From NCBI GenBank assembly GCA_003252395.1, contig QKEL01000008.1:372001-436000 (forward strand): 64,000 nucleotides of DNA, in the 5' to 3' direction. This DNA comes from Spirochaetales bacterium (GTDB taxonomy: Bacteria > Spirochaetota > Spirochaetia > Treponematales > Treponemataceae). A program made the translations under genes and the position numbers. Below, in pieces: positions 5,663 through 23,130 of this stretch. The notes under the pieces are model-generated. The model searched no databases and was not told the DNA's origin. It worked only from the letters and a program-made list of their open reading frames with translations. Within the stretch, counting starts at the first letter, position 1. Each line of letters opens with the position of its first letter.

Positions 5663-6887
5663 ACGATCCCCTGTGTATCCGTCGCGGTTCCGCCACGGCG
5701 CTTTCAAAGAGCGATTTAAGGCCAAGCGCGGACTTTGTTTCGTCGAACTCCGCTCGTACCGCGGCGAAACCGAGGGCCCCCATCCGCGAAGCCTCATCCG
5801 GATCGGAAAGGACGAAGCCCATCGCGTCCGCGAGCTCGCCCGCGTCTCCGGGAGAGACGAGCAAGCCGTTCTGGCCGTGTATGACCAATTCGGGAATTCC
5901 GCCCACGCGCGTGGCCACCACGGGCCGTCCATGGGAAAAGGCCTCCATCAGAACGACGGGCACCCCTTCCGAAAAGCTCGCCAAGGCCACGAGCGAGGCC
6001 CGCGCGATCCGTTCGGCCACCGCCGCGGGATCAAGGGATCCGGTAAAGATAACCGAGGAAGGGTCGGCGAGTTCCCGGCATCGCCGTTCCAATTCTGCCC
6101 GTAAGGGGCCGTCGCCCACGAGGACGAGGCGAACCCCGGGAACCTTCCGCAGGAGCGCTTCGAAGGCGTCTAGCAGGATAAAGTGCCCCTTTTCGGCCGA
6201 CAAACGCCCCACGCACAGGATCTCCCGTTCTTGCGGCCCCGGATTCGGATAAGGATCGGGCGTGGTCTCGGAAATGCCGCAGCGCACCACGTGATACTTA
6301 TTCCAGCATTCCCGAGCGCTCGCGTGCATCAACCGGGCCCGGCCGAATTTGCTCACGCAGGCGATAAAGGCGGCGGACCGCGCCTTTTCGGGAAGCCGAA
6401 ACCCGACAGGGTCATTCAGTTCCGAGCCGTGGCAGGTTATGCTGAACGGAACGTTGGCTATCCTCGCCGCGATCCACGCCGTGTGGGACCCGCTGTTGCC
6501 GAAATGGCAGTGGAGATGTTCATAGCCGCCGTTAACGATCCACCGCGCGAGCACGATGCCTTCCACCGTATAGGCGAGCCATTTTACGGTACCCTTGAGA
6601 GAACCCGCGGCGAAAACCATTCTTCGCAAAACGTCCGTTAAAGCGCCGAATCGCCTGAACGCGCACCAGGCGAGGGAGGAAAACGCGTTCACGGGAGCGA
6701 GGGGCAAAATGGACCGGGTGTTTTCGGCCTCATCCCGCGCGGCGGACCCGAGGATATCGGACCCGCGCGCGCGGCGTACCGAGAACGTCCCGATTTCCAC
6801 GCCCAGCCGGCGCAAGGCGGCTATCTCGTTCAGGATGAACGTGTGCGATACCGCGGGATATAAACTGGTCACGTAGGCTATTTTCAT
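5655..6887 (-). CDS. Family 4 glycosyltransferase (WcaL/EpsD-like)
   Basis: A 410-residue GT-B retaining enzyme acting at the cytoplasmic face of the membrane. The N-terminal half starts with IAYVTSLYPAVSHTFILNEI, the acceptor-domain pattern of colanic-acid-type transferases (S-H-T-F-I-x-x-E). The middle contains the HCHFGN segment. The C-terminal donor domain has EILCVGRLSAEKGHFILLDAF and the EX7E motif in FSEGVPVVLMEAFSHGRPVVAT, followed by GGIPELV. It lies 10 bp after the deacetylase gene and overlaps the asparagine-synthetase-like gene. The donor sugar is not predictable. Confidence 0.92.
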   Translation of the reverse strand: MKIAYVTSLYPAVSHTFILNEIAALRRLGVEIGTFSVRRARGSDILGSAARDEAENTRSILPLAPVNAFSSLAWCAFRRFGALTDVLRRMVFAAGSLKGTVKWLAYTVEGIVLARWIVNGGYEHLHCHFGNSGSHTAWIAARIANVPFSITCHGSELNDPVGFRLPEKARSAAFIACVSKFGRARLMHASARECWNKYHVVRCGISETTPDPYPNPGPQEREILCVGRLSAEKGHFILLDAFEALLRKVPGVRLVLVGDGPLRAELERRCRELADPSSVIFTGSLDPAAVAERIARASLVALASFSEGVPVVLMEAFSHGRPVVATRVGGIPELVIHGQNGLLVSPGDAGELADAMGFVLSDPDEASRMGALGFAAVRAEFDETKSALGLKSLFESAVAEPRRIHRGSYA

Positions 6888-6897
6888 TACGGTATCC

Positions 6898-7944
6898 TTA
6901 TTTTTGGTTCCGCCCGAAGGCCCGATCGGCGAGGCCCGTCAATTCCATGCGGAAGAGCGCGGAAGAGGGTTTGCCGAAAAGGCCCGCCAAACGGTCCTCG
7001 CATATGAATCTCCTGCGCAGCTCGAGCGCGGGGGTCGAGCGGGGGTTATTGCCGGGAACGGTGGTGCACGCGTATTCATAGCCGGCGCCCTTTACGGCCC
7101 CAAGGGTCTGGCCGTCGTAATTCCCGTTGGGATAGCAGAACCCGCGAACGGCGTTGCCCGTCAGCGCTTCCAGCGCGCTTTTCGCCCCGGACACTTCCGC
7201 TTCGAGAGACTGCCCCGAAAGACCGGTCAGAATTTCGTGAGACACGCTGTGGGCCCCGATCTCATGTCCTTCGGCGATAAGCGCCCGCAATTCATCCGCT
7301 CCCATGATAAAATCGGTTTCGGGATTCGCCAGATCGGTCGCCGCCGCTTCCGAGAACGCTTCCACGATCCGCTTTCGATCCGCCGAGCCCAGTTCCTTCG
7401 CCCTCCGCACGATATCCCGGGGGGCGAGACCGTTGCCCGGCCCCGGAGAAAGGGCGATTCCGAGTGAGGAAACGAGATCGCGCAGCCGCCCCTGGGAGGC
7501 GAGATACCGTGAATCGCGGGCGAGCCGGTCGTACCACGGGCACGCGTTCTTTCCCGCGAGGCCCGATACGACGAAAAAGGTCGCCGTCAGGCCCGAAGAG
7601 CGCAACGCGGGCAGCGCGTACCGATAATTATCCAAGTACCCGTCGTCGAAGGTGATGGCCGCCAAGGGCCGCTCTCCCCGGTATCCGGACCGTAAAAGCG
7701 CGTAAGCTTCCCCCAGGGTACGGACTTCGTACCGCGAGGCCAGCACCCGGCATTGCGAATCAAAGGCCGCGGGGGTTACGGCGAGATCGGGAAAGGCATA
7801 CGCCCGTTTTTGGCTTTCGGGAAGGATACGGTGATAGCACAGGACCGTCAGCTCCGACGTAGCCGCCCTCTCGGCGCGCGAGAGGATCCCCGAGAAATCG
7901 CAGATGCGGGCCGCCCCGTTTCGTATTGTTTTTTTCAGCATCAT
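6898..7944 (-). CDS. Polysaccharide deacetylase (NodB domain)
   Basis: A 348-residue carbohydrate esterase family 4 protein likely to remove N-acetyl groups from the glycan made by this locus. The catalytic motif is TFDDGY, followed by TATFFVVSG. The metal-binding His pair is in GHEIGAHSVSHEILTGL, and a later substrate-groove motif is GFCYPNGNYD. The N-terminus has no convincing signal peptide, so it may act on lipid-linked intermediates inside the cell or be exported another way. Its ATG overlaps the stop of the upstream GT2 gene; a second ATG at 7941 is equally possible. Confidence 0.88.
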   Translation of the reverse strand: MMLKKTIRNGAARICDFSGILSRAERAATSELTVLCYHRILPESQKRAYAFPDLAVTPAAFDSQCRVLASRYEVRTLGEAYALLRSGYRGERPLAAITFDDGYLDNYRYALPALRSSGLTATFFVVSGLAGKNACPWYDRLARDSRYLASQGRLRDLVSSLGIALSPGPGNGLAPRDIVRRAKELGSADRKRIVEAFSEAAATDLANPETDFIMGADELRALIAEGHEIGAHSVSHEILTGLSGQSLEAEVSGAKSALEALTGNAVRGFCYPNGNYDGQTLGAVKGAGYEYACTTVPGNNPRSTPALELRRRFICEDRLAGLFGKPSSALFRMELTGLADRAFGRNQK

Positions 7945-8994: not shown

Positions 8995-10977
8995 TTACCG
9001 CTTCGCTATTTCCGCGAGAAGGCGCCAATACGCCTTCGCCATCCGCAGCCTTCCGGTACTCGAAAGGTGCCCCCCGTCAGAGAGCGTATACGCGCCGGCG
9101 GCCGCGTCGTGCCCGTTAATATCGGCTACCTTCGTTCCGTTTACCGCGTAATTCTCGATATCCGCCATATCAATGAGCCATTTCCCGTTTGCCGCGCAGT
9201 AGGCGCGTATCGCCTCGTTATAGGAATCGCGGGCCGCGTACGCCTGGTCGGATTGCAGGGGCATCGTCCAGTACGGCATAACGACGCCGGGATTGCTCGC
9301 CTCGAACGCCTCGCGCTGGGCAATTTCGCTTGCCGCGTACCCCGCTCCGTCGGTGATATAGTCATCCGCCGCGCTATACACGTCTATCCAGCAGTATTTG
9401 TACATCGCCACGTCGACCGCGGCGAGTACGTCGGAATCCATTCCGAGAAAGAGGGACAGCTTGGTGGCGGGCGGCGGGTTGTTGCGCCGCCAGGATTGTA
9501 ACCCCGAATGGCTCGAGAACCAGTCGGCGTTGAGCGAATCATGCTCTGAAAGGGAAATGCGATCGAAGTTATACCGGGAATTGGAGTCGTACAATTGCTT
9601 AAGGCCGCAGGACTCCGAATTATCGTAATTCTCGCCGACGGAGCAGTCAGTGTCCGAATCGCCGACGATATCCTGACCGGTAGACGCATGCTCGAAAACC
9701 ACCTTTAACGCCGCGGCGGCGAGAATTTCCGAATCTGACAGCGACGAGGGATCGAAATTGGTATGGTCGATCGTTATCCCACCGGAAACGGTAGGAGCCG
9801 CGCGGTGCGCCGTGACCGTATAGGTTTTCTGGGTAACCCCGTCCTGAGCCGTAACGACCAGCGATATCGTGTTCTCCCCGACGCTTAGCGCCACCGCCTG
9901 TCCCGATTGCCCGCCGACGCTGGCCGAAGGGTCGGCGGCAATGCCGGTAACCGTTATGCTGGATATCGCGTTGGCGACATACACGGCATAGGTAAGCGTG
10001 GACGCGGAGAAAGCGGGGCTCAGCGTTCCCTGGCTGACCGTCAGGGAAGCGAGATTCGCGTTCGAGCTCGGCGGGGCCCGGGTCACCGTCGCCGTATAGT
10101 CTTTTACCGTAGTGCCGTTTTCGGCGGTTACGGAAATAACGATCGTGTTCTCCCCGACGCTCAGGGCGACCGGCGTCCCGGACTGCCCGCCTACGCTGGC
10201 GGCACTGTCTTCAGCCGTTCCCGTTATGGTTATGGAAGTGACCGCGTATCCGACGGAAACGGCGTACGACTCGATAGTAGGCGAGAACGCGGGGGTCAGG
10301 GTTCCCTGGCTGACCGTCAGGGAAGCGAGATTCGCGTTGGCGCTCGGCGCGGCCCGGGTCACCGTCACCGTATAGTTTTTAACCGTAGTGCCGTTTTCGG
10401 CGGTTACGGAAATAACGATCGTGTTCTCCCCGACGCTCAGGGCGACCGGCGTCCCGGACTGCCCGCCTACGCTGGCGGCAAGGTCTTCAGCCGTTCCCGT
10501 TACGGTAATGGAAGTGACCGCGTATCCGACGGAAACGGCGTACGATTCGATATCCGGCGAGAACGCGGGGGTCAGGGTTCCGGTATCCAGATCCATCGCG
10601 TACAGCAAAGCGTTAGCCGGATCCGGTTCCGCGCGATTTACCGTAACGGTATACGTCTTTTGCGTGGTTCCGTTTTCCGCCGTCACCACTATGGATATCG
10701 GGTTCTCTCCCGCGTTCAATGCCACGGGCTGTCCCGATTGCCCGCCAACGCTAGCCGAAGGGTCGGCGGCAACGCCGGTGACCGTTATGCTGGAAATCGC
10801 GTTGACTACGTTTACCGTATAGGAAAGAGTCGAGGAGGAGAAAGCGGGGGTCAGCGTTCCCTCACTGACCGTGAGAGCCGAAAGGTCGGCATTTGCCTCT
10901 TTCACCTCGAGATTATTGCATGCTCCGAAAAATAAGACCGCAAAAGCGAGAACGTAAACAAAATACTTTTTAAGCAT
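8995..10977 (-). CDS. Lipoprotein with four cadherin-like repeats and SGNH-like domain
   Basis: A 660-residue lipoprotein with the signal ending FFGAC (Cys20). Residues ~30-393 are four tandem ~92-residue beta-sandwich repeats of the cadherin-like (PF12733) type; each begins with an L-x-x-L-T-V-S-x-G-T-L-T-P-A-F pattern and ends in a K-x-Y-T-V-T-V strand. The C-terminal ~260 residues look like an SGNH/GDSL hydrolase: VGDSDT at ~438-443 as block I and SDGGHLSSTGRLRMAKAYW as block V with the D-x-x-H pair. Such a domain often adds or removes O-acetyl groups on polysaccharide. It would sit on the cell surface with the repeats as a stalk. Family calls come from motifs only. Confidence 0.8.
   Translation of the reverse strand: MLKKYFVYVLAFAVLFFGACNNLEVKEANADLSALTVSEGTLTPAFSSSTLSYTVNVVNAISSITVTGVAADPSASVGGQSGQPVALNAGENPISIVVTAENGTTQKTYTVTVNRAEPDPANALLYAMDLDTGTLTPAFSPDIESYAVSVGYAVTSITVTGTAEDLAASVGGQSGTPVALSVGENTIVISVTAENGTTVKNYTVTVTRAAPSANANLASLTVSQGTLTPAFSPTIESYAVSVGYAVTSITITGTAEDSAASVGGQSGTPVALSVGENTIVISVTAENGTTVKDYTATVTRAPPSSNANLASLTVSQGTLSPAFSASTLTYAVYVANAISSITVTGIAADPSASVGGQSGQAVALSVGENTISLVVTAQDGVTQKTYTVTAHRAAPTVSGGITIDHTNFDPSSLSDSEILAAAALKVVFEHASTGQDIVGDSDTDCSVGENYDNSESCGLKQLYDSNSRYNFDRISLSEHDSLNADWFSSHSGLQSWRRNNPPPATKLSLFLGMDSDVLAAVDVAMYKYCWIDVYSAADDYITDGAGYAASEIAQREAFEASNPGVVMPYWTMPLQSDQAYAARDSYNEAIRAYCAANGKWLIDMADIENYAVNGTKVADINGHDAAAGAYTLSDGGHLSSTGRLRMAKAYWRLLAEIAKR
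9799..10890 (-). repeat. Four tandem ~276-bp coding repeats
   Basis: The DNA for the four cadherin-like domains is a tandem array with a 276-bp (92-codon) period. The central two units are almost identical: the block beginning GTAGTGCCGTTTTCGGCGG recurs unchanged at about 10110 and 10386, and the block beginning GTTCCCTGGCTGACCG recurs at 10025 and 10301. The outer units are more diverged. This points to recent in-frame expansion, and copy number could vary between strains. Confidence 0.9.
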
Positions 10978-11009: not shown

Positions 11010-12284
11010 TTAACCCATCGGTTTCACGCCTCTGTCGTATCGAGTCCTGACCGAATCAATCAACATCCGGCGAAGACGGAGAAAAACCCGTACGGTAAAC
11101 CGCATTGGTTCCAAAAGGTATAAAAAAACGATCATTCGAGAGCGGTCCGGCAATCCGTAATCCGCCGTCAGTTGATACGCGCGCGGCAGGGCATGGGGCA
11201 CGATAAAAAGGGTTTTTAATCGGGCCTTAAGCGATCCTTTAAGGATGAACGGCGCGGATAGCCGATACAGAAAAGAATGCCACCGGTCATACGAGTCGAT
11301 ATCAATAAGGATACGGCAGAAAAGACCCTTCAACCATCGCTTTCCCCTCCCTAAACGGCGATTGAGGGTGGTTTGAAATTCGGCGGGAACCAATGCGCCC
11401 GTATACCGCTCACAGAGGGCGATCAAGGCGGCAAGGTGAAATTCCAGCCCGAAATGGCGGGCGCGGGCCGCCAATCGCTTCCAGTCGGGAGTGTGCGAGA
11501 CAAGGTTTGTATAATCCGTCAGATGCCGCAAAATAAACGACTTATTTACCGGAGAGCGTTTCAGTACGACGTGGAGGGCGAGTAGCAAAAAACGGTCCTC
11601 GATGCACAGATATCGGTTGCCGGTTTCGGCATCGATCGAGCTTGCGGCCCAAAAATCCGGCACCGATTTTTTTAGTCGCGAGAGGTTTTCATCGTATACG
11701 CGCGCTGTTTCGAAAAAGGCCGTATGAAGCTCGATGAGCGTACCCGATTCAGTATCCTTAAATTCGAACTGGTTCGACCACTTTTTCAGTTTGTCCCATC
11801 TTCGGTTCTCGCGCTTCCGGATGTGCAGATTGCGTTCGTACCCGACGTACGTATACCCTTTTGACTCCAGAAGCTCGATTATCGGCAGCAAATCCTTCTC
11901 GCGTATAAGCAAGTCAATGTCGCCTTCATCGCGGGGCGTTCCGAAGGAGAGGCTTGCGCCTTTCAGGACGATCGGGGGCTCGGCGATGGCCCCAATGAGG
12001 TTTATTGCCTTCTTCAGGGATTTTTCAATCTGTTGCCGATCCCGCTCACGGGCCATATCGGCCATCATCGCCCATACGATCCAAGGTTGGGGAACGGCGG
12101 GCGTACGCAGTATCGCAGCGGCAAGTAACCCGCTTACCTTATGCCGAATCGCGAGCCGCTCCAATAGTTCCTTTCGGCAGCCGGCTAAACCCGGCAATAC
12201 CGCGCCTCCTAGCACGAGGCGGGAGAGAAAGAGAAGCTCTGATTCAGCGTCTATAGCGCAATTACTTGAAAAAAAGGTTTTCAT
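11010..12284 (-). CDS. Nucleotidyltransferase-fold family protein (NTP_transf_5-like)
   Basis: A 424-residue protein with the minimal nucleotidyltransferase signature: IVLKGASLSFGTP followed by the two metal-binding Asp residues in DEGDIDLLI, about residue 125. A long alpha-helical C-terminal part follows. Members of this family are found beside PqqD-like proteins and HPr-kinase-like proteins in peptide-modification and polysaccharide clusters; their reaction is not established to my knowledge. ATG 12284 is chosen because the open frame upstream runs into the ABC permease gene. The stretch is richer in A+T than its neighbours, which may indicate separate acquisition. Part of the long minus-strand unit. 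Confidence 0.75.
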   Translation of the reverse strand: MKTFFSSNCAIDAESELLFLSRLVLGGAVLPGLAGCRKELLERLAIRHKVSGLLAAAILRTPAVPQPWIVWAMMADMARERDRQQIEKSLKKAINLIGAIAEPPIVLKGASLSFGTPRDEGDIDLLIREKDLLPIIELLESKGYTYVGYERNLHIRKRENRRWDKLKKWSNQFEFKDTESGTLIELHTAFFETARVYDENLSRLKKSVPDFWAASSIDAETGNRYLCIEDRFLLLALHVVLKRSPVNKSFILRHLTDYTNLVSHTPDWKRLAARARHFGLEFHLAALIALCERYTGALVPAEFQTTLNRRLGRGKRWLKGLFCRILIDIDSYDRWHSFLYRLSAPFILKGSLKARLKTLFIVPHALPRAYQLTADYGLPDRSRMIVFLYLLEPMRFTVRVFLRLRRMLIDSVRTRYDRGVKPMG

Positions 12285-12339
12285 TTTAGATTCTAGAGAT
12301 ATTTTACTGCACTCGGACGGAGTATTCAGGAAAAGTTCC

Positions 12340-13143
12340 CTAGAATTGAACCAAACTACCCTCTTTCTTGGCCCGAGAAAGGGCCAGCCGCAGAGACAGA
12401 AGACCCAGGGGAAAGAGTACAACGGCGAATACGGCGAGGTACGCCATCGTATACCGCCATTCCCCCGACGATCCAGAAACCAATAATAGTTCACGAACCG
12501 CCCGGGTCGCGTGTGAGATGGGCAAAATGAAGGAAAATCCCTGCAATACCTTGGGCAATACCTCTACGGGAAAGAAGATGCCGCCAAAAAAGTAGCTCGA
12601 CGCGCCAAAAATGAGGTTTATGGGATTCCCCTGCTTGAAGGTCATGATAAACGCCGCGGAGACCATTCCCAACGAAAGGAAACAAATGAAGGTGAGCACG
12701 AGGACCAGGAACACGAGAAGGATCCGAGCGACCGATACGTGAAGGCCCACGATCAGGATCGTCATGCCCAAATATAATACGGTCATGAGGAAGGCCTGAA
12801 TGAACGACCAAAGGGAATTCCCGAACAGGATAAGGTTCGCGGATGTGGGAGTAACCAGCAAAACCTCGAGCGTACCCTGCATCTGGGCCTCCCGGACGGA
12901 TGAAGAAAGGGAGTACAGTCCGGTGGAAACGAACGTGCTCACGCACATGCCCAAAAGCGCGAAGGCAAAATAATCGTTTCCGTATCGGGCGAGATACATC
13001 GAGAAACCGTTCTGAAACATTTTGCCCATAAAGAATAGCATGGCTATCGCGGCGACCATGCCCATGAGGCTCAGCAATAGCCTGAACCGGTAACTAAGGG
13101 TAATGAGAAAATCCCTATACAGAAACGCGAATAGTTTGGTCAT
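12340..13143 (-). CDS. ABC-2 type exporter permease
   Basis: A 267-residue integral membrane protein with about six predicted helices (for example FRLLLSLMGMVAAIAMLFFMG, ILLVFLVLVLTFICFLSLGMV, and a C-terminal AYLAVFAVVLFPLGLLSL). The layout matches the ABC-2/DrrB family, which exports glycans, peptides or drugs. The segment SSSVREAQMQGTLEVLLVTPTS is the conserved cytoplasmic coupling region. It overlaps the stop of the ATPase gene by four bases, so the two form one transporter. Position allows export either of the polysaccharide or of the modified peptide encoded at 16987-17136. Confidence 0.9.
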   Translation of the reverse strand: MTKLFAFLYRDFLITLSYRFRLLLSLMGMVAAIAMLFFMGKMFQNGFSMYLARYGNDYFAFALLGMCVSTFVSTGLYSLSSSVREAQMQGTLEVLLVTPTSANLILFGNSLWSFIQAFLMTVLYLGMTILIVGLHVSVARILLVFLVLVLTFICFLSLGMVSAAFIMTFKQGNPINLIFGASSYFFGGIFFPVEVLPKVLQGFSFILPISHATRAVRELLLVSGSSGEWRYTMAYLAVFAVVLFPLGLLSLRLALSRAKKEGSLVQF

Positions 13144-14117
13144 CGATTACCGACCTTCCTGCGCAAGAGCCGAAGAAGATCGTCTTGATCGGCAAAGGCT
13201 TCCCGTAATTCGCCGCCGGCGAGTATAAAATCGCGGAGTATCCGTTCCTGGCGAACGCGATCGCCGTCAAACAGCAGGCGAACCGTTCCCGGACCATCGA
13301 AAAGAATCGCGTCTCCCCATCCGGAAACCCAGTCTGCGGGCAAATCGCCGGAATACCGCAGTACAATCTCGCGCCGGTTCTCGAGCAACGAGCCCAATTC
13401 CCCGATTTGGCCCATGGCCACGACCTGGCCCGCGTCGAGCACGGCGACGAGGTCGGCTAAGTGGCGGGCTTCCTCGAGATCGTGGGTGCAGAGAAATACC
13501 GTGGCGCCGCGTTTATCGATAAGGACCTCCCTAATGAATTTCCGGAAATCCTCCCTCGCGAGCGGGTCAAGATGCGCGGCGGGCTCGTCGAGCAAAAAAA
13601 GCTCCGGTGACCCGAGCAGGGCCCGCGCGATGTTCAGCTTCTGTTTCATTCCGGCGGAGTAAAGTCGGTATGGCTTATCCGCGGACTCGCTCATTCCCGA
13701 CTCGCTTAGGGCCTCTTCAACCCGCCGCGCGAGCGCCCTGCCGCTAAGCCCGTAGAGGCTCCCGAAAAAATTCAGGTTCTCCCGACCGGTCAGGCGCCAA
13801 TAAAACGAACGCTCGTTCGGCGTCACGAGCCCGATGCTTCCCTGTATGGCCTTTCCGTCCCCGGAAACGACCGCTCCGCGAAAGCGAACTTCCCCCTCGT
13901 CAGGGGTTATCAGGCAAGAAAGGATTTTTATGAGCGTGGTTTTCCCGGCGCCGTTGGGACCGAGCAAGCACGTCACCTTCCCCGTGGGGATATCCATATC
14001 CACCGACGAAAGCGCCTGGAGCGATTTTCTCTTTCGGAAAGGGTTCGTAAGCGGTTCGGAAAACCGTTTTGAGATGCCTCGGAGGCTCACGATGCACTCG
14101 CGCTCGGGATATGCCAT
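13140..14117 (-). CDS. ABC exporter ATP-binding protein
   Basis: A 325-residue ATPase, partner of the adjacent permease. Walker A is GPNGAGKTTLIK, the signature LYSAGMKQKLNIARAL, and Walker B LFLLDEPAAHLDP with H-loop CTHDLEEARHL. A C-terminal extension of ~90 residues after the core resembles the regulatory tail of DrrA/CcmA-type exporters. I place the start at ATG 14117 rather than ATG 14123, because the -10 hexamer is only 2 nt from the latter. The first codon is then 8 nt from the -10 with no ribosome-binding site. This is the first gene of the long minus-strand polysaccharide unit. Confidence 0.92.
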   Translation of the reverse strand: MAYPERECIVSLRGISKRFSEPLTNPFRKRKSLQALSSVDMDIPTGKVTCLLGPNGAGKTTLIKILSCLITPDEGEVRFRGAVVSGDGKAIQGSIGLVTPNERSFYWRLTGRENLNFFGSLYGLSGRALARRVEEALSESGMSESADKPYRLYSAGMKQKLNIARALLGSPELFLLDEPAAHLDPLAREDFRKFIREVLIDKRGATVFLCTHDLEEARHLADLVAVLDAGQVVAMGQIGELGSLLENRREIVLRYSGDLPADWVSGWGDAILFDGPGTVRLLFDGDRVRQERILRDFILAGGELREAFADQDDLLRLLRRKVGNR

Positions 14118-14125
14118 ATACATAC

Positions 14126-14161: not shown

Positions 14162-14692
14162 ATGCTTGACAGCGAAAGGAAGCGCTTCTACGCTTACGTA
14201 AGACTTCACGCGAGGGTACGAAAAATGGACGAGCCATTATCCCCGAACGGTTTTCTGTCGCTTCTTGGGGGCAGGTCCACCGAACCGGTTTGGATTCCCG
14301 TTCTATCAGGCAGTATGAGCCCCACCCTTATCCCGGGAGACCAGGTCCTGATCGTTCCCGGAAATTGGAAAAAATGCGCGATAGGGGATATCATAGTATT
14401 TCGTGAGGGACACTCGCTCACGTCGCACCGGCTTATCGGGAAAATTCGGTTCCCGGGAAGGACTCTCTTTTTCCAGCAGGCCGACGGGATGAGTCATGGC
14501 GGGTTCATTCGCGTCGAGAGCGTTATCGGAACGTGCGCGGCCTTGAGGCGTCATGATACCGAAACGACCTTGCTGGACCGTAAAATTAATAAAGCGCTCG
14601 CCAATCGAAGCAGGATGAGAACGATTCTCTTCCTGGTAAGGAGCATTAAAAAATGGATATACCGCAAGATACGTACTTTCCCCTCGCCTTAG
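14162..14692 (+). CDS. S26-type signal peptidase
   Basis: A 176-residue serine peptidase. The motif LSGSMSPTLIPGDQV carries the predicted nucleophile Ser51 followed by Met. The second active-site region, DIIVFREGHSLTSHRLIGKI, has a His (His89) rather than the bacterial Lys, so it belongs to the ER/archaeal-like Ser-His branch. A hydrophobic segment follows only near the C-terminus (MRTILFLVRSIKKWI). It is the first gene of the plus-strand unit with the kinase, PqqD-like and radical SAM genes, which suggests a job in trimming the cluster peptide or an exported partner. ATG 14162 has an AAGG site; ATG 14225 with GAGGG upstream is an alternative start. Confidence 0.8.
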   Translation: MLDSERKRFYAYVRLHARVRKMDEPLSPNGFLSLLGGRSTEPVWIPVLSGSMSPTLIPGDQVLIVPGNWKKCAIGDIIVFREGHSLTSHRLIGKIRFPGRTLFFQQADGMSHGGFIRVESVIGTCAALRRHDTETTLLDRKINKALANRSRMRTILFLVRSIKKWIYRKIRTFPSP

Positions 14693-15510
14693 GGCCGGTC
14701 ATTATCGGTTTGCGATTCGACCAGAAAGGGTACACGCAAGCCCTAGCCGAGTACTTTAGCCCGGCTACCCCCGGCAACGCGCCGGACGTATTTATAGATT
14801 TTACGCTCGTAGAACACGACGATTTCCCGGAAATACCGCAAAGCCTCATTCAATCGAAAAAATGGACGAAGGGAACCTTTTCCATCGCGGAAAACCTGTT
14901 CCGGGGAAAGTCCGGCCCCACCGCGCAAACGTGGGAAATAGAGGTAAAAACGATCATGACCAAGGGCCAGATCACGCGGGTTTTCGAACAGTTCCTCTAC
15001 CAAGCCTTTTACACCGCCTGTTCAATCGCGCGTAAGCCCGGTATTTTGATCCACTCCTCGGGCATTGCCGTAGACGGACGGGGGTTCCTTTTCGTCGGGC
15101 CGTCGGGCATGGGCAAGAGCACGATCGCGGAAATGAGCCGAGGTTATGAGGTCTTCAACGACGAAATGAATATCCTCACCCCGGAAGGATCCGGGGGATA
15201 TCGCGTAAACCCAAGCCCGTTCAACGCGTATTTCGAGGGTAAAACCGCTTCTTCAGCCCCGCTTAAGGCGATCTTCCTGCTGCGGCACGCGGACGAATGC
15301 CGCCTCGAAACTATTTCCCCGGCAATGGCGGTGGCCGAAATAACGGGACAGGTCGTGCCGCCCCTCGGGCTTGAGGACGCGTATACCCAGGCGGTGGCTA
15401 CCCGGATGATGGAAATCGCCTTTGACCTAACGGCCAAGGTGCCCGTCCGTCTTTTGTACTTTCCGCGGGAGGGCGGTTTTTGGCCCCTCGTTCTCGATAC
15501 ATTTCGCTAA
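14653..15510 (+). CDS. HPr-kinase-like protein (RiPP cluster type)
   Basis: A 285-residue protein whose C-terminal half resembles HPr kinase/phosphorylase: IHSSGIAV, then P-loop GPSGMGKS at 149-156 and the following Glu/Asp-containing NDEMNIL at 169-175. The N-terminal half is specific to the HprK-related kinases that occur with PqqD-like proteins rather than with carbohydrate control. In some lasso peptide clusters a relative phosphorylates the precursor peptide. The gene overlaps the signal-peptidase gene by 40 bp and has its own AAGGAG site at 14637-14642. A peptide-tailoring role is inferred from the neighbourhood. Confidence 0.8.
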   Translation: MDIPQDTYFPLALGPVIIGLRFDQKGYTQALAEYFSPATPGNAPDVFIDFTLVEHDDFPEIPQSLIQSKKWTKGTFSIAENLFRGKSGPTAQTWEIEVKTIMTKGQITRVFEQFLYQAFYTACSIARKPGILIHSSGIAVDGRGFLFVGPSGMGKSTIAEMSRGYEVFNDEMNILTPEGSGGYRVNPSPFNAYFEGKTASSAPLKAIFLLRHADECRLETISPAMAVAEITGQVVPPLGLEDAYTQAVATRMMEIAFDLTAKVPVRLLYFPREGGFWPLVLDTFR

Positions 15511-15536
15511 CGAAATCTACTGAGGAGCAGCCCACA

Positions 15537-15809
15537 ATGGACGACACATTGGTTTTAGTCAAAAACGAGGCATTGACGGTGAGAGAACTTGGAGAGGAAA
15601 TACTTTTCCTGGACCCGGAGGGCACGTCCATTCACGTCGCCGACGAGGTTGGCGGTTTTATTTACCATCAGATAGACGGCATAAAAACCCTTGGGGACGT
15701 TTTACGATCGATACTCACGGAATATGAAGTGGACGAAAAGACGGCGCGGGAAGATTTATATGCCTTTATCGGGCAATTGATCGAGAAGAAAATCCTGAGC
15801 GCCCGCTAA
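15537..15809 (+). CDS. PqqD-like RiPP recognition element protein
   Basis: A 90-residue stand-alone PqqD-fold protein. It has the expected three beta strands (VKNEALTVRELGEEILFLDP, then SIHVADEVGGFIYHQIDG) followed by a winged-helix part (IKTLGDVLRSILTEYEVDEKTAREDLYAFIGQL). Proteins of this family grip the leader of a precursor peptide and present it to the modifying enzyme. ATG 15537 follows a GAGGAG site; an in-frame ATG at 15480 lies inside the kinase gene and is ignored. Its stop overlaps the start of the radical SAM gene (TAATG), a strong sign that the two products work together. Confidence 0.88.
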   Translation: MDDTLVLVKNEALTVRELGEEILFLDPEGTSIHVADEVGGFIYHQIDGIKTLGDVLRSILTEYEVDEKTAREDLYAFIGQLIEKKILSAR

Positions 15810-16819
15810 TGCCAGCATTACTCGACGAGATTTACGCCAAATACAAAAAAGGCAATCGCGCCTATGCGGTAATGCTGGAATTGACCTATCGCTGCGTCTG
15901 CCGTTGCGTTCACTGCTATATCGACGATTACGAATCCGAAGAGATGGGCACCTCGGAAATCGTCGATCTTTTAGACCAATTAAAGGACGAGGGCGTCCTC
16001 GACATCGGACTGACCGGCGGCGAGGTTTTCCTTCGCGACGATCTCGAAACCATTCTTGAGGAGACGTCGCGGCGGGGGTTTGTCACCTACGTCCTTACCA
16101 CCGGCATTCTCATAAACGAGAAGCGGGCCGACATGCTCAAGCGCAATAGAATACACCACGTCGAAATATCGCTTATGGGGGCGACCGCGGAGACCCACGA
16201 CCTCGTCATGCGCCACCCGGGAGCCTTCGACAAGACCATGAACGCGGTTCGATTGCTCGCGGAACGCGGCATACCGGTCGTTCTTAAAAACTCGGTCCTC
16301 CGGCAAAACTACCGGGAGCTTCCCGCGATGTTCAAACTGGCGGAAACCCTTAAGCTTCCTTTCAGCGCGAATATCAGCGTTTTGCCGAGAATTGACGGGA
16401 CGTTCGACAATCAGCATTGCGCGCTTGACTATCAAACCGCGCTGTCGATCGATTCGTCCCTCATGCAGGGGGGGCTTCTACCGAACGAGGACGCCCGCGG
16501 AGGCGCGAAACTCACGTGCAACGCCGGCAAGACGACATGCGGCATCTCCCCGACGGGCATCGTATACCCGTGCCTAATCTGGCGAATGCCCCTGGGTAAC
16601 GTTAGGGAAAACCGATTCCGGGATATTTGGAGAGACAAGCCAAACGAGAGCCTTAGGCGATTGCGCGCCATGAAAGGCGAAGACGCGAAGGAATGCTTTT
16701 CCTGCGACTTCGCGAAAAAATGCAAGAGATGCCCGGGGCTCGCCTTTTCCGAAACGGGCGACTACCTCAGCCCCGTCGAATCTTCGTGCATCCTCGCGGG
16801 TAAAAAGGCGATAAAATAA
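15809..16819 (+). CDS. Radical SAM/SPASM peptide-modifying enzyme
   Basis: A 336-residue radical SAM protein. The [4Fe-4S] motif CxxxCxxC is Cys29, Cys33 and Cys36, within CVCRCVHCY; an extra Cys31 lies in the motif. The SAM-binding GGE motif is TGGEVFLRDD. A C-terminal SPASM region carries further Cys residues in LTCNAGKTTCGISPTG, YPCLIW, CFSCDFAKKCKRCPG and a final SSC, enough for auxiliary clusters. Enzymes of this class make thioether, C-C or other crosslinks on peptides, or oxidise side chains. Fused start with the PqqD-like gene and the nearby 49-residue peptide point to RiPP maturation. The reaction cannot be read from sequence. Confidence 0.9.
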   Translation: MPALLDEIYAKYKKGNRAYAVMLELTYRCVCRCVHCYIDDYESEEMGTSEIVDLLDQLKDEGVLDIGLTGGEVFLRDDLETILEETSRRGFVTYVLTTGILINEKRADMLKRNRIHHVEISLMGATAETHDLVMRHPGAFDKTMNAVRLLAERGIPVVLKNSVLRQNYRELPAMFKLAETLKLPFSANISVLPRIDGTFDNQHCALDYQTALSIDSSLMQGGLLPNEDARGGAKLTCNAGKTTCGISPTGIVYPCLIWRMPLGNVRENRFRDIWRDKPNESLRRLRAMKGEDAKECFSCDFAKKCKRCPGLAFSETGDYLSPVESSCILAGKKAIK

Positions 16820-16820
16820 A

Positions 16821-16865
16821 GAACCGGTTCCGGCGAGCCTTCGAGCGGCGCATCGGAACCGGTTC
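16821..16865. terminator. Convergent terminator between RiPP maturation genes and peptide gene
   Basis: A perfect 12-bp stem pairs GAACCGGTTCCG (16821-16832) with 16854-16865, with a 21-nt loop. On the minus strand it is followed by CTTTATTTTAT, so it should end the peptide transcript. No T-run follows on the plus strand, although it may still act on the radical SAM transcript. Each arm is itself a palindrome (GAACCGGTTC). Confidence 0.65.
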
Positions 16866-16986
16866 CCCACCTGCAGCAAGTCAATGCTGAAACGTTAACG
16901 ATTTTTAAGAATCTTGCCATAAGCGTCTCGTGCTACCGGAACGGCGTCGATCATCTCGCGCGCCGATTCCACCGCAATACGCGCAA

Positions 16987-17136
16987 TCAGCCTCCGCAGC
17001 AAAGCCCGAAGAAGGGATTAAACCAGCCGATGACCGGGGCCCAGGCGCCGTCACCGCTGTCGCTTCCGTAGGCACCGAAAACGCCGATCGCGATCGTTTC
17101 CGTCTTAAGAGTCGGGCTCTTGTACACTTTTTTCAT
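16987..17136 (-). CDS. Candidate RiPP precursor peptide, 49 residues
   Basis: A short gene with a strong ribosome site (AGGAGG, 17141-17147) before ATG 17136. The peptide begins MKKVYKSPTLKTETIAIGVF, so it carries YKSPTL at 5-10. This fits the Y-x-x-P-x-L leader motif that PqqD-like proteins bind in lasso-type and related precursors. A Gly/Ser/Asp stretch follows (GAYGSDSGDG, 21-30), then a hydrophobic, aromatic tail AWAPVIGWFNPFFGLCCGG with two adjacent Cys, two Trp and a Gly-Gly end. It has no signal peptide. It lies 57 bp downstream of the sugar transferase gene and 167 bp from the convergent radical SAM gene. A role as substrate of that enzyme is inferred; the core boundary is unknown. 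Confidence 0.72.
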   Translation of the reverse strand: MKKVYKSPTLKTETIAIGVFGAYGSDSGDGAWAPVIGWFNPFFGLCCGG

Positions 17137-17193: not shown

Positions 17194-18387
17194 TCAGGAA
17201 TTGACCAACTGATTCGCGTCTTGGGTAAACACGATCCCGGAATCGCCGACAGGCCCCTTGTCCTTCCGTTTCTTCTCGTTCCGTTTATCGATGACGGACT
17301 CGACGATCATTTTCGCGATCGCGAAGGGGGTACGCAAAATGATCGCCAAGTCGCCGAGGGGCGTGATATGCTGGCAATAGGTTATGTCCAGGCGGATCAT
17401 CTGCTTAAAGGTCAGTTTGTTTTTTCCGCTCACCTGCCAGAGGCCGGAAAGGCCGGGCATCGTGTCGAACCGGTGGGTATGCCAGCGAAGGTATTCCTGC
17501 GCTTCGTAGGGTATGCACGGGCGGGGCCCGACCAAACTCATATCGCCGCGGAGAATGTTCCATAACTGGGGTAACTCGTCTATGCAGGTTTTCCGCAAGA
17601 CGTGCCCGCCGAAGAAGATCCTCGGATCGCGGCCGTCCAGTTTTACCATGGGAACGTTTCCGTCCTTGATAAAGCTCTGCGCGTGCTTTCCGTGGAAGGT
17701 TTGGTTGTTTTCGTACTTCATGGTCCTGAATTTATAGAGCATGAAGGGTCTCCCCTTGTATCCTATCCGCGTTTGCTTAAAAAACACCGGCCCGGGAGAG
17801 ACGATTTTTATGAAAAGCGCCGTAAGCAAAAAAACGGGAGAAACGAAAACGAGCATAAGGGCCGACACGCAGATATCCAATGCCCGCTTCCAGCCAGGAA
17901 CCTTAACGACAAAGTAGGACTCGACCAATTCGCGAAAAGAACGGACCGATTTCACTTCAGCGCATTGGCCTTTATTGGGTTCGGCGGAATTGACGAGCCA
18001 ATGGTCAGGATACGAGTAGAGCTCTACCGTCATGTGGCAGCGGTAAAGCGTGTCCAAGCCGTCTAGCGCCTTTTGCGCGAAAGAGGAAGCGCCGTCGCCG
18101 GAGGTATCCGGAAGGAGGACGGAGATACGGCCGCCTTCGTCCATGCCGATGCAATCGATCGCGCGGGTAAACTTGGACATATCAATGACGAGGTTTGGCG
18201 GGATTTGACGCTGGTTTGCCGGAAAGCTGAACACCGCGACGGAAAAAACACTGCCGTTTCTGTCCGCCCTCATGCGCTCGTAACGCACCAGGGCCTTAAA
18301 CTCCTCGGGAGCGAATATATTGTTTCGGGTAGACAGTTGTACCTGAAAAATCTTCGGAATCCGATAACTTTTCTTCGAGCCTTTCAT
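17194..18387 (-). CDS. Undecaprenyl-phosphate priming sugar transferase, GGDEF-like N-terminus
   Basis: A 397-residue initiating transferase of the bacterial sugar transferase family. The C-terminal catalytic part starts with WKRALDICVSALMLVFVSPVFLLTALFI (membrane hairpin), followed by GPVFFKQTRIGYKGRPFMLYKFRTM, the DELPQLWNIL motif and MSLVGPRP. It loads the first sugar phosphate onto undecaprenyl phosphate. Residues ~25-150 resemble a degenerate GGDEF domain (YERMRADRNGSVFSVAVF) lacking the catalytic GGDEF, so it may be a regulatory fold. ATG 18387 has an AGAGGAG site; the 198-bp A+T-rich gap upstream presumably holds its promoter. Its product should start the glycan assembled by the enzymes at 1181-8939. 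Confidence 0.9.
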   Translation of the reverse strand: MKGSKKSYRIPKIFQVQLSTRNNIFAPEEFKALVRYERMRADRNGSVFSVAVFSFPANQRQIPPNLVIDMSKFTRAIDCIGMDEGGRISVLLPDTSGDGASSFAQKALDGLDTLYRCHMTVELYSYPDHWLVNSAEPNKGQCAEVKSVRSFRELVESYFVVKVPGWKRALDICVSALMLVFVSPVFLLTALFIKIVSPGPVFFKQTRIGYKGRPFMLYKFRTMKYENNQTFHGKHAQSFIKDGNVPMVKLDGRDPRIFFGGHVLRKTCIDELPQLWNILRGDMSLVGPRPCIPYEAQEYLRWHTHRFDTMPGLSGLWQVSGKNKLTFKQMIRLDITYCQHITPLGDLAIILRTPFAIAKMIVESVIDKRNEKKRKDKGPVGDSGIVFTQDANQLVNS

Positions 18388-18585
18388 AACAAATATCTCC
18401 TCTGTCCAGTACCAAAAAAAAGCAAATATCAGGTTAAACAACTACTATTTATCATGTTATCTCCAATCTCTTTAATTATCCATGGAACGCGGGTATGATT
18501 TTGCGTGATTTTAAGGGTAAATTTCTAAGCCCTAGCTACTACCATAGTATTAGACGTTCTCACCCTTTTCGGGGGGAAACCTTTA

Positions 18586-19263
18586 CTATACAGAGATATT
18601 CGCCGCGGCCCATTGAGAGGCTTGAAGCCGGCTGGAGACGTTTATTTTTTTATATATGTTGTACAGGTGGGTTTTTACGGTATTGGTACTGATGAACATC
18701 TTCCGCGCGATTTCATCGTTACTGGCGCCGCGGCACACGAGGGTCAGAATCTCGATCTCCCGCGCCGTGAGCGAGTTCTTGCTTTCTGCGGTATCCGTGT
18801 TTTCCCGTAAACCGTCGAGCACGCACTGAAGGAGCACCGATCGCGATATCCACACTTCGCCGGTAAGGATCGTGCGCACGCCCTTCAGGAAAATCTCGAG
18901 TTGGTCGTCCTTATAGAAAAAGCCCCTTACGTTTTTTTTGAGCGCCCTTTTTTCGATTCCCCCGTTTTCCTTCATATTGATCAGGGCGATAAAGGCGTCG
19001 GCAAAAAGCGGGCGCGAAGCGAGCAGAGGCAGGATATCCTCGAAACTATGTTCCTCATTATCGATGAGCAAAAGGACTCGATCGCCCTGATTTGCCTTGT
19101 CCGGGTCAATGCCGACGCGAACGGGCCGTAAATCCTTATCGAAGATGTAACAAGGGTAGGAGAGTTCTTTTTGAATGACATAGGTGTAAAATTCGTTTTG
19201 AAGGTTTTGGGGACCGACAATGTAAATGCTACACTTTTGTGATATCCCTGTGTCGTTACTCAA
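18586..19263 (-). CDS. CsgD/VpsT-like LuxR-family regulator
   Basis: A 225-residue transcription factor with a receiver-like N-terminal domain lacking the usual Asp pocket and a LuxR-type helix-turn-helix (LTAREIEILTLVCRGASNDEIARKMFISTNTVKTHLYNIYKKI). This architecture is that of CsgD and VpsT, which switch on matrix polysaccharide genes. Between the domains is WISR at 138-141, close to the W-[FLM]-[TS]-R motif with which VpsT binds cyclic di-GMP. The start is a TTG at 19263 preceded by GAGG at 7 nt. It lies directly upstream of the priming transferase, so it is the likely regulator of the locus. Confidence 0.85.
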   Translation of the reverse strand: MSNDTGISQKCSIYIVGPQNLQNEFYTYVIQKELSYPCYIFDKDLRPVRVGIDPDKANQGDRVLLLIDNEEHSFEDILPLLASRPLFADAFIALINMKENGGIEKRALKKNVRGFFYKDDQLEIFLKGVRTILTGEVWISRSVLLQCVLDGLRENTDTAESKNSLTAREIEILTLVCRGASNDEIARKMFISTNTVKTHLYNIYKKINVSSRLQASQWAAANISV

Positions 19264-21174: not shown

Positions 21175-21741
21175 TTACTTTGCGCGCTCGGAGAACGAGC
21201 CATCCCGGGTATCGAGCAGGATTCGGGTGCCGATTTCGCAGAAAAGGGGAACCTGAACCACGTAGCCGGTATCGAGGGTGGCGTTCTTGGTCGCCTTTCC
21301 CGAGGTATCGCCTTTCAGGCCGGGCTCGCAGTAGGTGATCTCGCGTTCAATGAGTATCGGAAGGCTCACGCCGACGGGTTTTCCGTTATAGAAGGTGAGT
21401 TCCACGACGAATTCGTCGCCGTCCTTGATGAAATTGACGTTATCGCCCAGATCATCCTTGGAGATCTCGAACTGCTCGTAGGTTTCCTCTTCCATGAAAA
21501 CGTAATTGTCGCCATCGAGGTAGGAAAGCTTTACCTTGTGGATATCGAGTTCCGCTTCCTGGAATTTTTCGCTTGAATCGAAACCGACGTCCATAGTCTG
21601 GCCGGAAACGATATTCTTGATCCGAAGGCGGTACACCATGGAACCGCGGCCGCTTTTGTTGCCGAGCATGCGCTGAACGATCATGGGATCGTTGCCGTTC
21701 ATGAACACGGTGCCGACCCGTAACTGGGAAGCTGCTAACAT
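21175..21741 (-). CDS. efp: Elongation factor P with arginine at the modification site
   Basis: A 188-residue translation factor that relieves ribosome stalling at consecutive prolines. It has the KOW-like domain I and two OB domains, with the C-terminal signature region VPLFCEIGTRILLDTRDGSF. The tip of domain I reads GNKSGRGSMVYRLRIKN. Counting from ATG 21741, the residue that meets the peptidyl-tRNA is Arg32, not the Lys used for beta-lysylation. Arg32 is the site rhamnosylated by EarP in Pseudomonas and Shewanella. ATG 21741 follows GAGAGAAG; the GTG five codons upstream would shift the numbering. The earP gene lies 52 bp upstream in the same direction. Confidence 0.95.
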   Translation of the reverse strand: MLAASQLRVGTVFMNGNDPMIVQRMLGNKSGRGSMVYRLRIKNIVSGQTMDVGFDSSEKFQEAELDIHKVKLSYLDGDNYVFMEEETYEQFEISKDDLGDNVNFIKDGDEFVVELTFYNGKPVGVSLPILIEREITYCEPGLKGDTSGKATKNATLDTGYVVQVPLFCEIGTRILLDTRDGSFSERAK

Positions 21742-21793
21742 AGTATCTTCTCTCACATAAAAAAGGATTAGAGGTTATGCCGCACAGAGACGG

Positions 21794-23023
21794 CTATTGG
21801 GCATTGTACAGCGAAACGTCGATGAATGTCATTAGGTTGACGGCCAGGTTTCCCCGATCGCGGGCCATTTGGCTCAATTTCCGGAAGGCATTCCCTATTT
21901 CGGCTGCCCGCAAGACCCGTAAAAGGTCTCCGGGAAGGACCGCGTCGCCCTGAGGCTGGCATTCAACGGGCGAATCGGGGGTATCGTCGCACGCCCGGTT
22001 AAACCTCCGGGTTAGTTTTTCGTATACGGCGAATTCCCCCGGGTCGGAAAACTGCCGGAGCGCCTCGAGAAACGCCCTGATTTTTTCCAAATGGCCTGCG
22101 GTAACGCCGTCCGACTCGGTGAACGGATAGCATTCCCAAAGAAAGGGGCGACCGGCGAGAATGGCCCGGGAAAAGCTTTCCTCCCCGCGGATCACCGCGA
22201 AGTCGGTAGCCGCGAAAAGCCGGTCCCACAGGAGCTGACCGAGCATCGGGAGGGGAATGACGGGAAAGGGAGCGCCCGCGCGTTCCCAGGCCCGAAGAAA
22301 CGGGATCGCGCTGCGGCCTGCGGCGGCAAACGCCAAGACGGGCCGATCCCGTCCGAACTCCGCCAGATCCCCGACGAGCGATTCAAAATCGTGCTCGTAG
22401 CTGAAAACGAGAACCCAGTAAGCGGAAACCCAAGAATCGGCGATGGGCCGAACGGAGGATATTTCGCCCAGTAAGGCGGCTCGCATGGATTCCCGCGACG
22501 CTTGGCCAGAGGCTTCCGCGAGGGCCTGCGCGAACTGCGCGTCCTGGAGCAAACCGCCGGTGCCCGGAAGGATACCGGGCATGAAAATCGCCTTTTGGAC
22601 ATAAGGCGAACGGGTTAAGGACGGCAGAAGATGGTATTCAGCGGACCATTGCTCGACGGTGAAATATTCAAGATCGATCAAGAGGCGCCTTTCCCCGTCG
22701 GAAGGGTCGAACAGGATTCCTTCAAACCATTCGGGGCGGCCGCACGCGTAGCATTCGATCGCGACACGGGGGGGAGCGGCCCTATACAGACGGACTGCGG
22801 CCTCACCGGGATCGTTCCAGCGGAAAATCTCCCATCCATTGACGGTCTGGTAAGGCAAGGCCGGATCGATGCCGGGGCAGAGCGCGGCAAAGGAAGCGAG
22901 ATCGTCGACTACGACGCGGAGACGGGGAGGATCGCCCAATTCGGAGAGGGAACGGGCCAGGCGATAAGCGAAGCCGATGTCGCCGAGGTTATCGACCACC
23001 CGGCAGAGTATGTCGACGATCAT
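21794..23023 (-). CDS. earP: EF-P arginine rhamnosyltransferase EarP
   Basis: A 409-residue GT-B inverting glycosyltransferase (GT104, formerly DUF2331) that transfers rhamnose from dTDP-rhamnose to Arg32 of EF-P. The N-terminus MIVDILCRVVDNLGDIGF contains the D-N-x-G-D motif whose Asp residues (here 11 and 15) are catalytic. RGEESFSRAILAGRPFLWECYP near the C-terminal third is the nucleotide-binding region with the conserved Glu. ATG 23023 is preferred over GTG 23044 because a TATCAT hexamer sits exactly 6 nt before it. Adjacent to efp, its substrate gene. dTDP-rhamnose synthesis genes are not in the window. Confidence 0.93.
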   Translation of the reverse strand: MIVDILCRVVDNLGDIGFAYRLARSLSELGDPPRLRVVVDDLASFAALCPGIDPALPYQTVNGWEIFRWNDPGEAAVRLYRAAPPRVAIECYACGRPEWFEGILFDPSDGERRLLIDLEYFTVEQWSAEYHLLPSLTRSPYVQKAIFMPGILPGTGGLLQDAQFAQALAEASGQASRESMRAALLGEISSVRPIADSWVSAYWVLVFSYEHDFESLVGDLAEFGRDRPVLAFAAAGRSAIPFLRAWERAGAPFPVIPLPMLGQLLWDRLFAATDFAVIRGEESFSRAILAGRPFLWECYPFTESDGVTAGHLEKIRAFLEALRQFSDPGEFAVYEKLTRRFNRACDDTPDSPVECQPQGDAVLPGDLLRVLRAAEIGNAFRKLSQMARDRGNLAVNLMTFIDVSLYNAQ

Positions 23024-23029
23024 GGCCGC

Positions 23030-23035
23030 ATGATA
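23030..23035 (-). promoter_or_regulatory. Putative -10 element of earP
   Basis: TATCAT on the minus strand ends 6 nt before ATG 23023. No good -35 is visible at 17 bp (CTGCGT). The call rests on the same -10-to-ATG spacing as at other genes in the window. Confidence 0.4.
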
Positions 23036-23130
23036 GCAGATCACGGCGTTTTACGCAGGAGGGGCACAGTGCTTTTCCCTATGTTCCGCCCTTTCCTCCG
23101 ATGGTACTATTTTTATCGAGAGAGGGTACC

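What the first reader, a model, noticed from the sequence alone, without database searches (positions are those of the whole stretch)
14162..17136. Possible undescribed RiPP system: signal peptidase, HPr-kinase-like, PqqD-like and radical SAM genes with a convergent 49-residue peptide
Seen: four plus-strand genes overlap tightly (40-bp and 1-bp overlaps, one 26-bp gap) and converge on a short minus-strand gene with a good ribosome site. The peptide has YKSPTL near its start, a Gly/Ser/Asp-rich middle and an aromatic tail ending in Cys-Cys-Gly-Gly. Established: PqqD-like proteins bind leaders (Y-x-x-P-x-L is the lasso-type leader motif), SPASM radical SAM enzymes modify peptides, and HprK-related kinases can phosphorylate lasso-type precursors. 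Inference: these genes make a modified peptide. The combination of a SPASM enzyme, an HprK-like kinase and a Ser-His S26 peptidase is not one I recognise as a described RiPP class.
Basis: partly seen in the sequence, partly recalled or inferred. Interest (0 to 1): 0.88.

Follow-up and report, generated by a model that had tools for sequence, protein, structure and literature searches.

The report
Radical-SAM peptide cluster with phosphorylation genes
A spirochaete-like bacterium carries genes that probably make, trim, phosphorylate and export a small modified peptide; among the genomes compared, the extra radical enzyme appears only where a peptide has cysteine near its end, so this looks like a new branch of a peptide family described in 2026.

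Summary
Four tightly packed genes (S26 peptidase, HprK-like kinase, PqqD/RRE, radical SAM/SPASM) converge on a 49-aa gene with a strong ribosome site. The peptide is real: 38 homologous precursors, all with YxxP...GV[FY]GxY, were read in 31 genomes, the window's included (Spirochaetota, Latescibacterota, Krumholzibacteriota). In 80 Krumholzibacteriota genomes peptide and kinase co-occur (18 both, 2 and 3 alone, 57 neither).

New here: a radical SAM orthologue occurs in 9 of the 31 genomes, and exactly those 9 have a peptide with Cys near its C-terminus (8 Cys-Cys; 7 with P-[LF]-F-x-[LIW]-C-C); the other 22 have none (Fisher p 5e-8; six changes on the kinase tree). So the enzyme most likely acts on that tail, probably making thioether crosslinks (bond type inferred).

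The core gene set is not undescribed. It matches the linear polyphosphorylated peptides (LPPs) of Popov et al. 2026, said there to be restricted to Bacillota; the text mentions no radical enzyme. Leader consensus and transporter differ, so I call this an LPP-like new variant, not an LPP. Lasso is disfavoured: no B2-type protease over cut-off in 30 of 31 genomes.

The parts
16987..17136 (-). Precursor peptide, 49 aa: leader MKKVYKSPTLKTETIAIGVFGA, core YGSDSGDGAWAPVIGWFNPFFGLCCGG (boundary inferred)
   Evidence: Homologues in 30 other genomes with the same leader motif; out-of-sample HMM score 47.9 bits; AGGAGG before the ATG
15809..16819 (+). Radical SAM/SPASM enzyme, proposed to act on the C-terminal Cys tail
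   Evidence: PF04055, PF13186; CxxxCxxC and seven SPASM-region Cys invariant in 7 of 7 aligned orthologues; orthologues only in genomes with C-terminal-Cys peptides among those searched
15537..15809 (+). PqqD-type RRE, leader-binding
   Evidence: PF05402; nearest solved chains by single sequence LppB 9x8z (E 4.4e-5) and PbaB1 9x90 (E 4.7e-5); Asp73, equivalent to LppB D70 by my count, invariant in 10 of 10
14653..15510 (+). HprK-like P-loop kinase
14162..14692 (+). S26 (archaeal/SipW-type signal peptidase-like) peptidase, proposed leader peptidase
   Evidence: TIGR02228 E 2e-8, SipW model E 6e-4, both below cut-off; Ser51 and Asp108 in 9 of 9 and His89 in 8 of 9 aligned
13140..14123 (-). ABC transporter ATPase (DrrA-like), export
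   Evidence: homologues beside the same genes in relatives
12340..13143 (-). ABC-2 permease
   Evidence: PF01061 E 6e-21
11010..12494 (-). NTP_transf_5 nucleotidyltransferase (true start probably near 12284)
   Evidence: PF14907 E 6e-24; homologues beside the cluster in several relatives
17194..18441 (-). Initiating sugar-phosphate transferase gene directly upstream of the peptide; context, may or may not act on it
   Evidence: PF02397 E 8e-58; same order sugar transferase-peptide in G002, where the peptide is 32 kb from the maturation genes

Best explanation
A RiPP (ribosomally made, post-translationally modified peptide) cluster that works like an LPP cluster plus a radical SAM step. The PqqD protein binds the YxxPx[LV] part of the leader and presents the precursor. 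The radical SAM/SPASM enzyme oxidises the C-terminal segment, most likely forming Cys-sulfur-to-carbon thioether links from the cysteines to nearby residues. The HprK-like kinase (poly)phosphorylates a hydroxyl residue and the NTP_transf_5 protein may add to that phosphate. The S26 peptidase cuts in or just after GVFGxY, and the ABC transporter exports the product. The setting suggests a link to surface polysaccharide. Shown by sequence: gene content, conserved leader, variable core, pairing of enzyme with C-terminal Cys. Inferred: bond type, phosphorylation site, cleavage site, order of steps, function.
For: All 38 precursors read have YxxP and GV[FY]GxY. 18 of 20 peptide-bearing Krumholzibacteriota genomes carry the kinase against 3 of 60 others, p 6.5e-13. 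Radical SAM orthologue (283 bits or more; the next listed score in these genomes is 78) in 9 of 31 peptide-bearing genomes; C-terminal Cys in 9 of 9 of these and 0 of 22 others (Fisher). Reverse test: of 392 Spirochaetota genomes only 4 hold an orthologue (550-559 bits, next 204), all among the 5 with the peptide. Enzyme presence changes at least 6 times on the best kinase tree; 3 independent pairs on supported branches, all concordant. G541, G672, G654 and 17 enzyme-free Krumholzibacteriota genomes were read after the pattern was noted and fit it. RRE closest by single sequence to LppB and PbaB1; LPP biochemistry.
Against: No product or mass shift is known. Enzyme absence rests on partly incomplete assemblies, though in five loci (L029, L030, L031, L033, L044) the stretch between kinase or PqqD and the peptide has no room for it. 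G298, read after the pattern was noted, has a single terminal Cys, not Cys-Cys, so strict Cys-Cys is 8 of 9 (p 1e-6; then 2 to 3 of 3 supported pairs concordant), and its S26 has Tyr for the catalytic His. Three supported pairs cannot reach significance (sign test p 0.25). The phosphorylated Ser3 of LPP is not conserved: Ser at core +3 (core counted from the invariant Tyr) in 5 of 9 Cys-type and 1 of 29 other peptides. Two peptide-bearing Krumholzibacteriota genomes lack a found kinase and three kinase genomes lack a found peptide. With a family profile LppB ranks only third among solved RREs, after TbiB1 and PbaB1.
Confidence: 0.75

Rival explanations
1. It is simply an LPP cluster; the radical SAM gene is a passenger or acts on something else.
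For: Shared S26, RRE, HprK-like kinase, NTP transferase, YxxP leader, polysaccharide setting; 22 of 31 peptide-bearing genomes show no orthologue of the enzyme.
Against: 9 of 9 versus 0 of 22 pairing with C-terminal Cys, mirrored in the reverse test; 1-bp overlap with the pqqD-like gene.
Confidence: 0.12
2. A lasso peptide cluster that has lost or hidden its cyclase parts.
For: YxxPxL leader, PqqD, HprK-like and nucleotidyltransferase genes also occur in phosphorylated lasso clusters (PMC9266682 passages; PMC13381572 section 6). An asparagine-synthase-like gene (3866-5932) lies about 5 kb beyond the nucleotidyltransferase gene, 11 kb from the peptide.
Against: PF13471 (B2 protease) over cut-off in 1 of 31 genomes, G552, on another contig; 4 more have sub-threshold hits in long frames; none in G000. 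The Asn-synthase-like gene matches XrtA-type polysaccharide amidotransferase and asparagine synthase models weakly. A genome-wide search for the cyclase was not made.
Confidence: 0.03
3. The Cys-Cys tail binds metal or forms disulfides, and the radical SAM enzyme modifies another residue of the Cys-type core, such as the Phe or Pro next to it.
For: All nine Cys-type tails also have a Phe one to three residues before the first tail Cys, and 7 of 9 have P-[LF]-F-x-[LIW]-C-C, so the target could be a neighbour of the Cys.
Against: Phe, Trp and Pro also occur near the C-terminus of enzyme-free peptides (for example L031, L030), whereas tail Cys does not.
Confidence: 0.2

Closest known systems
Linear polyphosphorylated peptides (LPP; lppA-K-B-S-D-N), Popov et al. 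2026, PMC13381572
   Same: S26/SipW-like leader peptidase, discrete RRE, HprK-like kinase, NTP transferase, ABC transporter, YxxP leader with variable core, polysaccharide loci
   Different: Outside Bacillota (the Discussion says LPPs are restricted to Bacillota; section 6 says predominantly); leader continues ...GVFGxY rather than HQxIxFETxxS; ABC-2 transporter pair here instead of MsbA-like (MsbA-like genes do precede Krumholzibacteriota peptides); Ser3 not conserved; added radical SAM/SPASM with Cys tail
Paeninodin/pseudomycoidin-type phosphorylated lasso peptides
   Same: PqqD-type B1, HprK-like kinase (His-Lys-Asp-Asp; here His-Lys-Asp-Glu), nucleotidyltransferase
   Different: No B2 protease over cut-off in 30 of 31 genomes; no cyclase seen among the cluster genes
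Sactipeptides and other SPASM-modified RiPPs (SkfB, AlbA; CteB and SuiB recalled)
   Same: Radical SAM + SPASM with RRE; Cys in the core; SkfB and PqqE are the best PDB sequence matches
   Different: Below the cut-off of all 25 shown of 73 NCBIfam hits; kinase, nucleotidyltransferase and S26 partners
SynChlorMet cassette (ScmC, ScmD, ScmE, ScmF)
   Same: HprK-like, PqqD-like and radical SAM proteins hit these models
   Different: All below cut-offs (45.6/125, 27.5/100, 121.9/400, 75.5/400 bits); no paper found under that name

Membership tests
LPP | S26/SpI-like peptidase with Ser-His-Asp | tested here: met
   S51, H89, D108 in the window; Ser and Asp 9 of 9, His 8 of 9 aligned, window included; no S26 seen in loci L030 and L032
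LPP | Discrete RRE of the YxxP-binding kind | tested here: met
   PqqD; LppB and PbaB1 are the top single-sequence PDB matches; D70 equivalent invariant 10 of 10, N33 equivalent D or N in 5 of 10; binding itself untested
LPP | HprK-like kinase | tested here: met
   (sequence models below cut-off; fold and conserved residues agree)
LPP | NTP transferase | tested here: met
   PF14907 at 11010-12494; that LppN is of the same Pfam family is not stated in the text read
LPP | MsbA-like transporter | tested here: not met
   Window has an ABC-2 permease + ATPase pair. In Krumholzibacteriota, 12 of 27 peptide loci have an ABC gene directly upstream; the 4 of these scanned are MsbA-like (PF00664+PF00005)
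LPP | Leader consensus YxxPxVLxHQxIxFETxxS | tested here: not met
   YxxP met in 38 of 38; the rest is replaced by ...GV[FY]GxY
LPP | Polyphosphorylation of core Ser3 | not testable with these tools
   Ser at core +3 in the window but in only 6 of 38 peptides
LPP | RRE within the monophyletic LPP clade | not tested
   No LPP RRE set was at hand
Lasso peptide | B2 transglutaminase-like leader protease | tested here: not met
   PF13471 over cut-off in 1 of 31 genomes, none in G000
Lasso peptide | Macrolactam synthetase (protein C) | tested here: inconclusive
   Only an XrtA-amidotransferase-like Asn_synthase gene 11 kb away; no genome-wide search
SPASM-modified RiPP | CxxxCxxC radical SAM motif plus SPASM cysteines | tested here: met
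   Invariant in 7 of 7; PF13186
Sactipeptide | Cys-S to alpha-carbon thioether | not testable with these tools
   Needs mass spectrometry/NMR
SynChlorMet cassette | Proteins above the NCBIfam cut-offs of ScmC/D/E/F | tested here: not met

The most novel reading that the evidence does not exclude
A RiPP class in which one precursor receives both a radical SAM crosslink at a C-terminal Cys tail and HprK-type polyphosphorylation extended by sugar or nucleotide, exported as a surface phospho-glycopeptide tied to polysaccharide synthesis, with interchangeable cores (Cys-type, Trp-rich, acidic) behind one leader in three phyla.
Probability: 0.35. Interest if true: 0.82.

Novelty: new variant of a known kind. 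Interest (0 to 1): 0.62.

Why it matters
It extends an LPP-like pathway, reported so far from Bacillota, to three further phyla, shows that it is modular (same leader and kinase, different cores), and gives a specific enzyme-substrate pairing: an unassigned SPASM enzyme and a tail that is usually P-[LF]-F-x-[LIW]-C-C. That pairing can be tested with two or three genes and could reveal what the radical step makes and what LPP-like peptides do in polysaccharide loci.

Tried and rejected
Considered and rejected: lasso peptide; SynChlorMet member; chance ORF. A first, narrower idea that enzyme presence requires Cys-Cys was weakened by G298 (single terminal Cys) and restated as C-terminal Cys. A conserved +3 Ser as kinase target, as in LPP, failed (6 of 38). 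Each of the 38 cores has at least one Ser or Thr; by my estimate that is near expectation and I draw nothing from it. Promoter and terminator scans were uninformative (2 promoter-like sites against 3.2 in shuffles, 10 terminator-like against 6.5). The cadherin-domain lipoprotein as a cluster partner: of the 23 relative loci compared, homologues appeared only in those of G002 and G054, so dropped. PDB sequence search with the kinase profile gave only weak P-loop hits.

Rows dropped before counts: weak peptide hits G052 (E 0.007, a stop inside) and G076, G338, G217 (E 9e-4 to 0.01), which match from residue 8 or position 13 onwards only; L077 (G654), which my leader HMM did not recover, so 27 of the 28 hits were read. 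L004 and L014 (G052) were fetched and not used further. Kinase rows L089, L103, L092, L101 (no peptide found) and L102 (second kinase of G672) were left out of the paired test. The radical SAM search in Krumholzibacteriota covered only the 20 peptide-bearing genomes of 80. In the kinase alignment some rows are match ranges, not whole ORFs (L022-L027). Searches are taken to be the same draw of 392 genomes.

Full report
WHAT IS THERE. Left of them, divergently transcribed, lie an ABC-2 transporter pair and an NTP_transf_5 nucleotidyltransferase; upstream of the peptide on its own strand is an initiating sugar-phosphate transferase gene (57 bp gap), then a VpsT/LuxR-type regulator. Further left is a polysaccharide locus: glycosyltransferases, epimerase, deacetylase, an Asn-synthase-like amidotransferase. 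The window's genome is 3.4 Mb in 15 contigs.

IS THE PEPTIDE REAL. Searching 59 related genomes with the peptide gave 4 matches at E 0.01 or better: the window, G002 (E 2e-10), G054 (E 9e-5) and G052 (E 0.007, dropped); within the genus 2 of 12 genomes have it. The kinase was found in 3 of 241 genomes of the order. A kinase-profile scan of genome contigs gave 14 loci. A leader HMM from four peptides (two of them from loci among the 14, one from G002) found a peptide in each Spirochaetota or Latescibacterota locus among them, five of them new; for L034 (G002) it lies 32 kb away on the same contig. Further genomes came from Spirochaetota (8 of 392 over threshold, 5 counted after dropping 3 weak hits), Latescibacterota (1 of 64) and Krumholzibacteriota (20 of 80). 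In all, 38 peptides from 31 genomes were read; all 38 have YxxP followed by GV[FY]GxY. In the 12-row alignment K3, Y5, P8, E13, GVFG and Y23 are invariant. The tails vary freely. In 11 of 12 loci where the peptide abuts cluster genes it faces them; L033 is co-directional. Control: the HMM built without the window peptide gives it 47.9 bits against 3.3 for the next ORF and at most 7.4 in 20 shuffles.

CO-OCCURRENCE. In 80 Krumholzibacteriota genomes, peptide and kinase are both present in 18, peptide alone in 2 (G652, G658), kinase alone in 3 (G665, G671, G679), neither in 57; Fisher p 6.5e-13. Six of the 18 (G541-G546) had supplied kinase rows to the profile. There the peptide often lies apart from the kinase but directly after an ABC transporter gene (12 of 27 peptide loci read); four of those 12 were scanned and all four are MsbA-like, membrane domain plus ATPase. 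One peptide (L076) follows an NTP_transf_5 gene.

THE RADICAL SAM ENZYME TRACKS C-TERMINAL CYSTEINE. With the window enzyme as query, orthologues at 42-52% identity and 283 bits or more occur in G553 (G002), G547 (L028), G298, G540 (L021), G551 (L032), G541, G672 and G654, besides the window; every other hit listed at E 1e-10 in the 31 genomes is under 80 bits. The nine peptides end ...PFFGLCCGG (window)...PLFGLCCS (G002)...PFFGLCCS (L028)...HPWFLFFC (G298)...LFFSACCAKSIF (L021)...PLFGWCCS (L032)...PLFGICCGGGGC (G541)...PFFRLCCS (G672) and ...PLFTLCCGG (G654). None of the 29 other peptides has Cys within its last 16 residues; many end in aromatic-rich tails or in acidic tails such as ...PSPVxVIxxLxLHME. 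At genome level 9 of 9 against 0 of 22 (p 5e-8; strict Cys-Cys 8 of 9, p 1e-6). Against: G541, G672 and G654 also carry Cys-free precursors (L073; L070 and L076; L072), so the enzyme does not imply that all precursors of a genome are Cys-type; and G298, read after the pattern was noted, had one terminal Cys. In 7 of 9 the enzyme gene is next to the peptide; in G002 it is 32 kb away and in G654 on another contig. On a 34-row kinase tree enzyme presence changes at least 6 times; deep branches are weakly supported. Of independent pairs, 6 exist on the best tree and 3 on strongly supported branches; the 3 are concordant, too few for a sign test to reach 0.05. In the reverse direction, of 392 Spirochaetota genomes exactly 4 hold the orthologue (550-559 bits; next 204), all among the 5 with the peptide, p 5e-9. 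All four sequences were in the profile; the single-query search gives them 311-770 bits.

COMPARISON WITH THE KNOWN. I read the abstract, passages and sections 6, 7, 11 and 12 of PMC13381572 and passages of PMC9266682; other papers only as search listings. The LPP paper defines the core found here; its Discussion says LPPs are restricted to Bacillota (section 6: predominantly). The word 'radical' does not occur in its main text. Two tested LPP features are not met by the window (leader consensus beyond YxxP; MsbA-like transporter), so I do not file it as an LPP, but it very likely works like one. Searches that showed no radical SAM version: (open-licence PubMed Central library only).

VERDICT. 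A sound observation, a partly right interpretation, and a new branch rather than a new kind. The most useful result is the enzyme-to-Cys pairing, which makes a cheap decisive test possible.

Noticed in passing
window 8995-10977(-): 660-aa lipoprotein-like protein with four cadherin-like beta-sandwich domains (PF12733, E 7e-61); homologues near the cluster in G002 and, N-terminal part only, G054.
   Followed up: partly
window 18586-19263(-): LuxR/VpsT-CsgD-like regulator next to the sugar transferase, conserved in G002 (E 4e-102); may control the locus.
   Followed up: no
L070 (G672), L072 (G654): Precursors with the same leader but unusual cores: a Gly-Arg-His repeat and a Gly-Trp repeat (GWSWGWGWGWFWGWWRR); several different cores behind one leader in one genome.
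   Followed up: partly
G552 contig C37, 319918-320259 (L104): A lasso-type PF13471 protease in a genome that also carries the L033 peptide cluster, on another contig.
   Followed up: no
window 21175-23044(-): Elongation factor P next to its rhamnosyltransferase EarP.
   Followed up: no
L043 (G298) 7414-7920: S26 peptidase with Tyr in place of the conserved catalytic His, in the one genome whose Cys-type peptide has a single terminal Cys.
   Followed up: no
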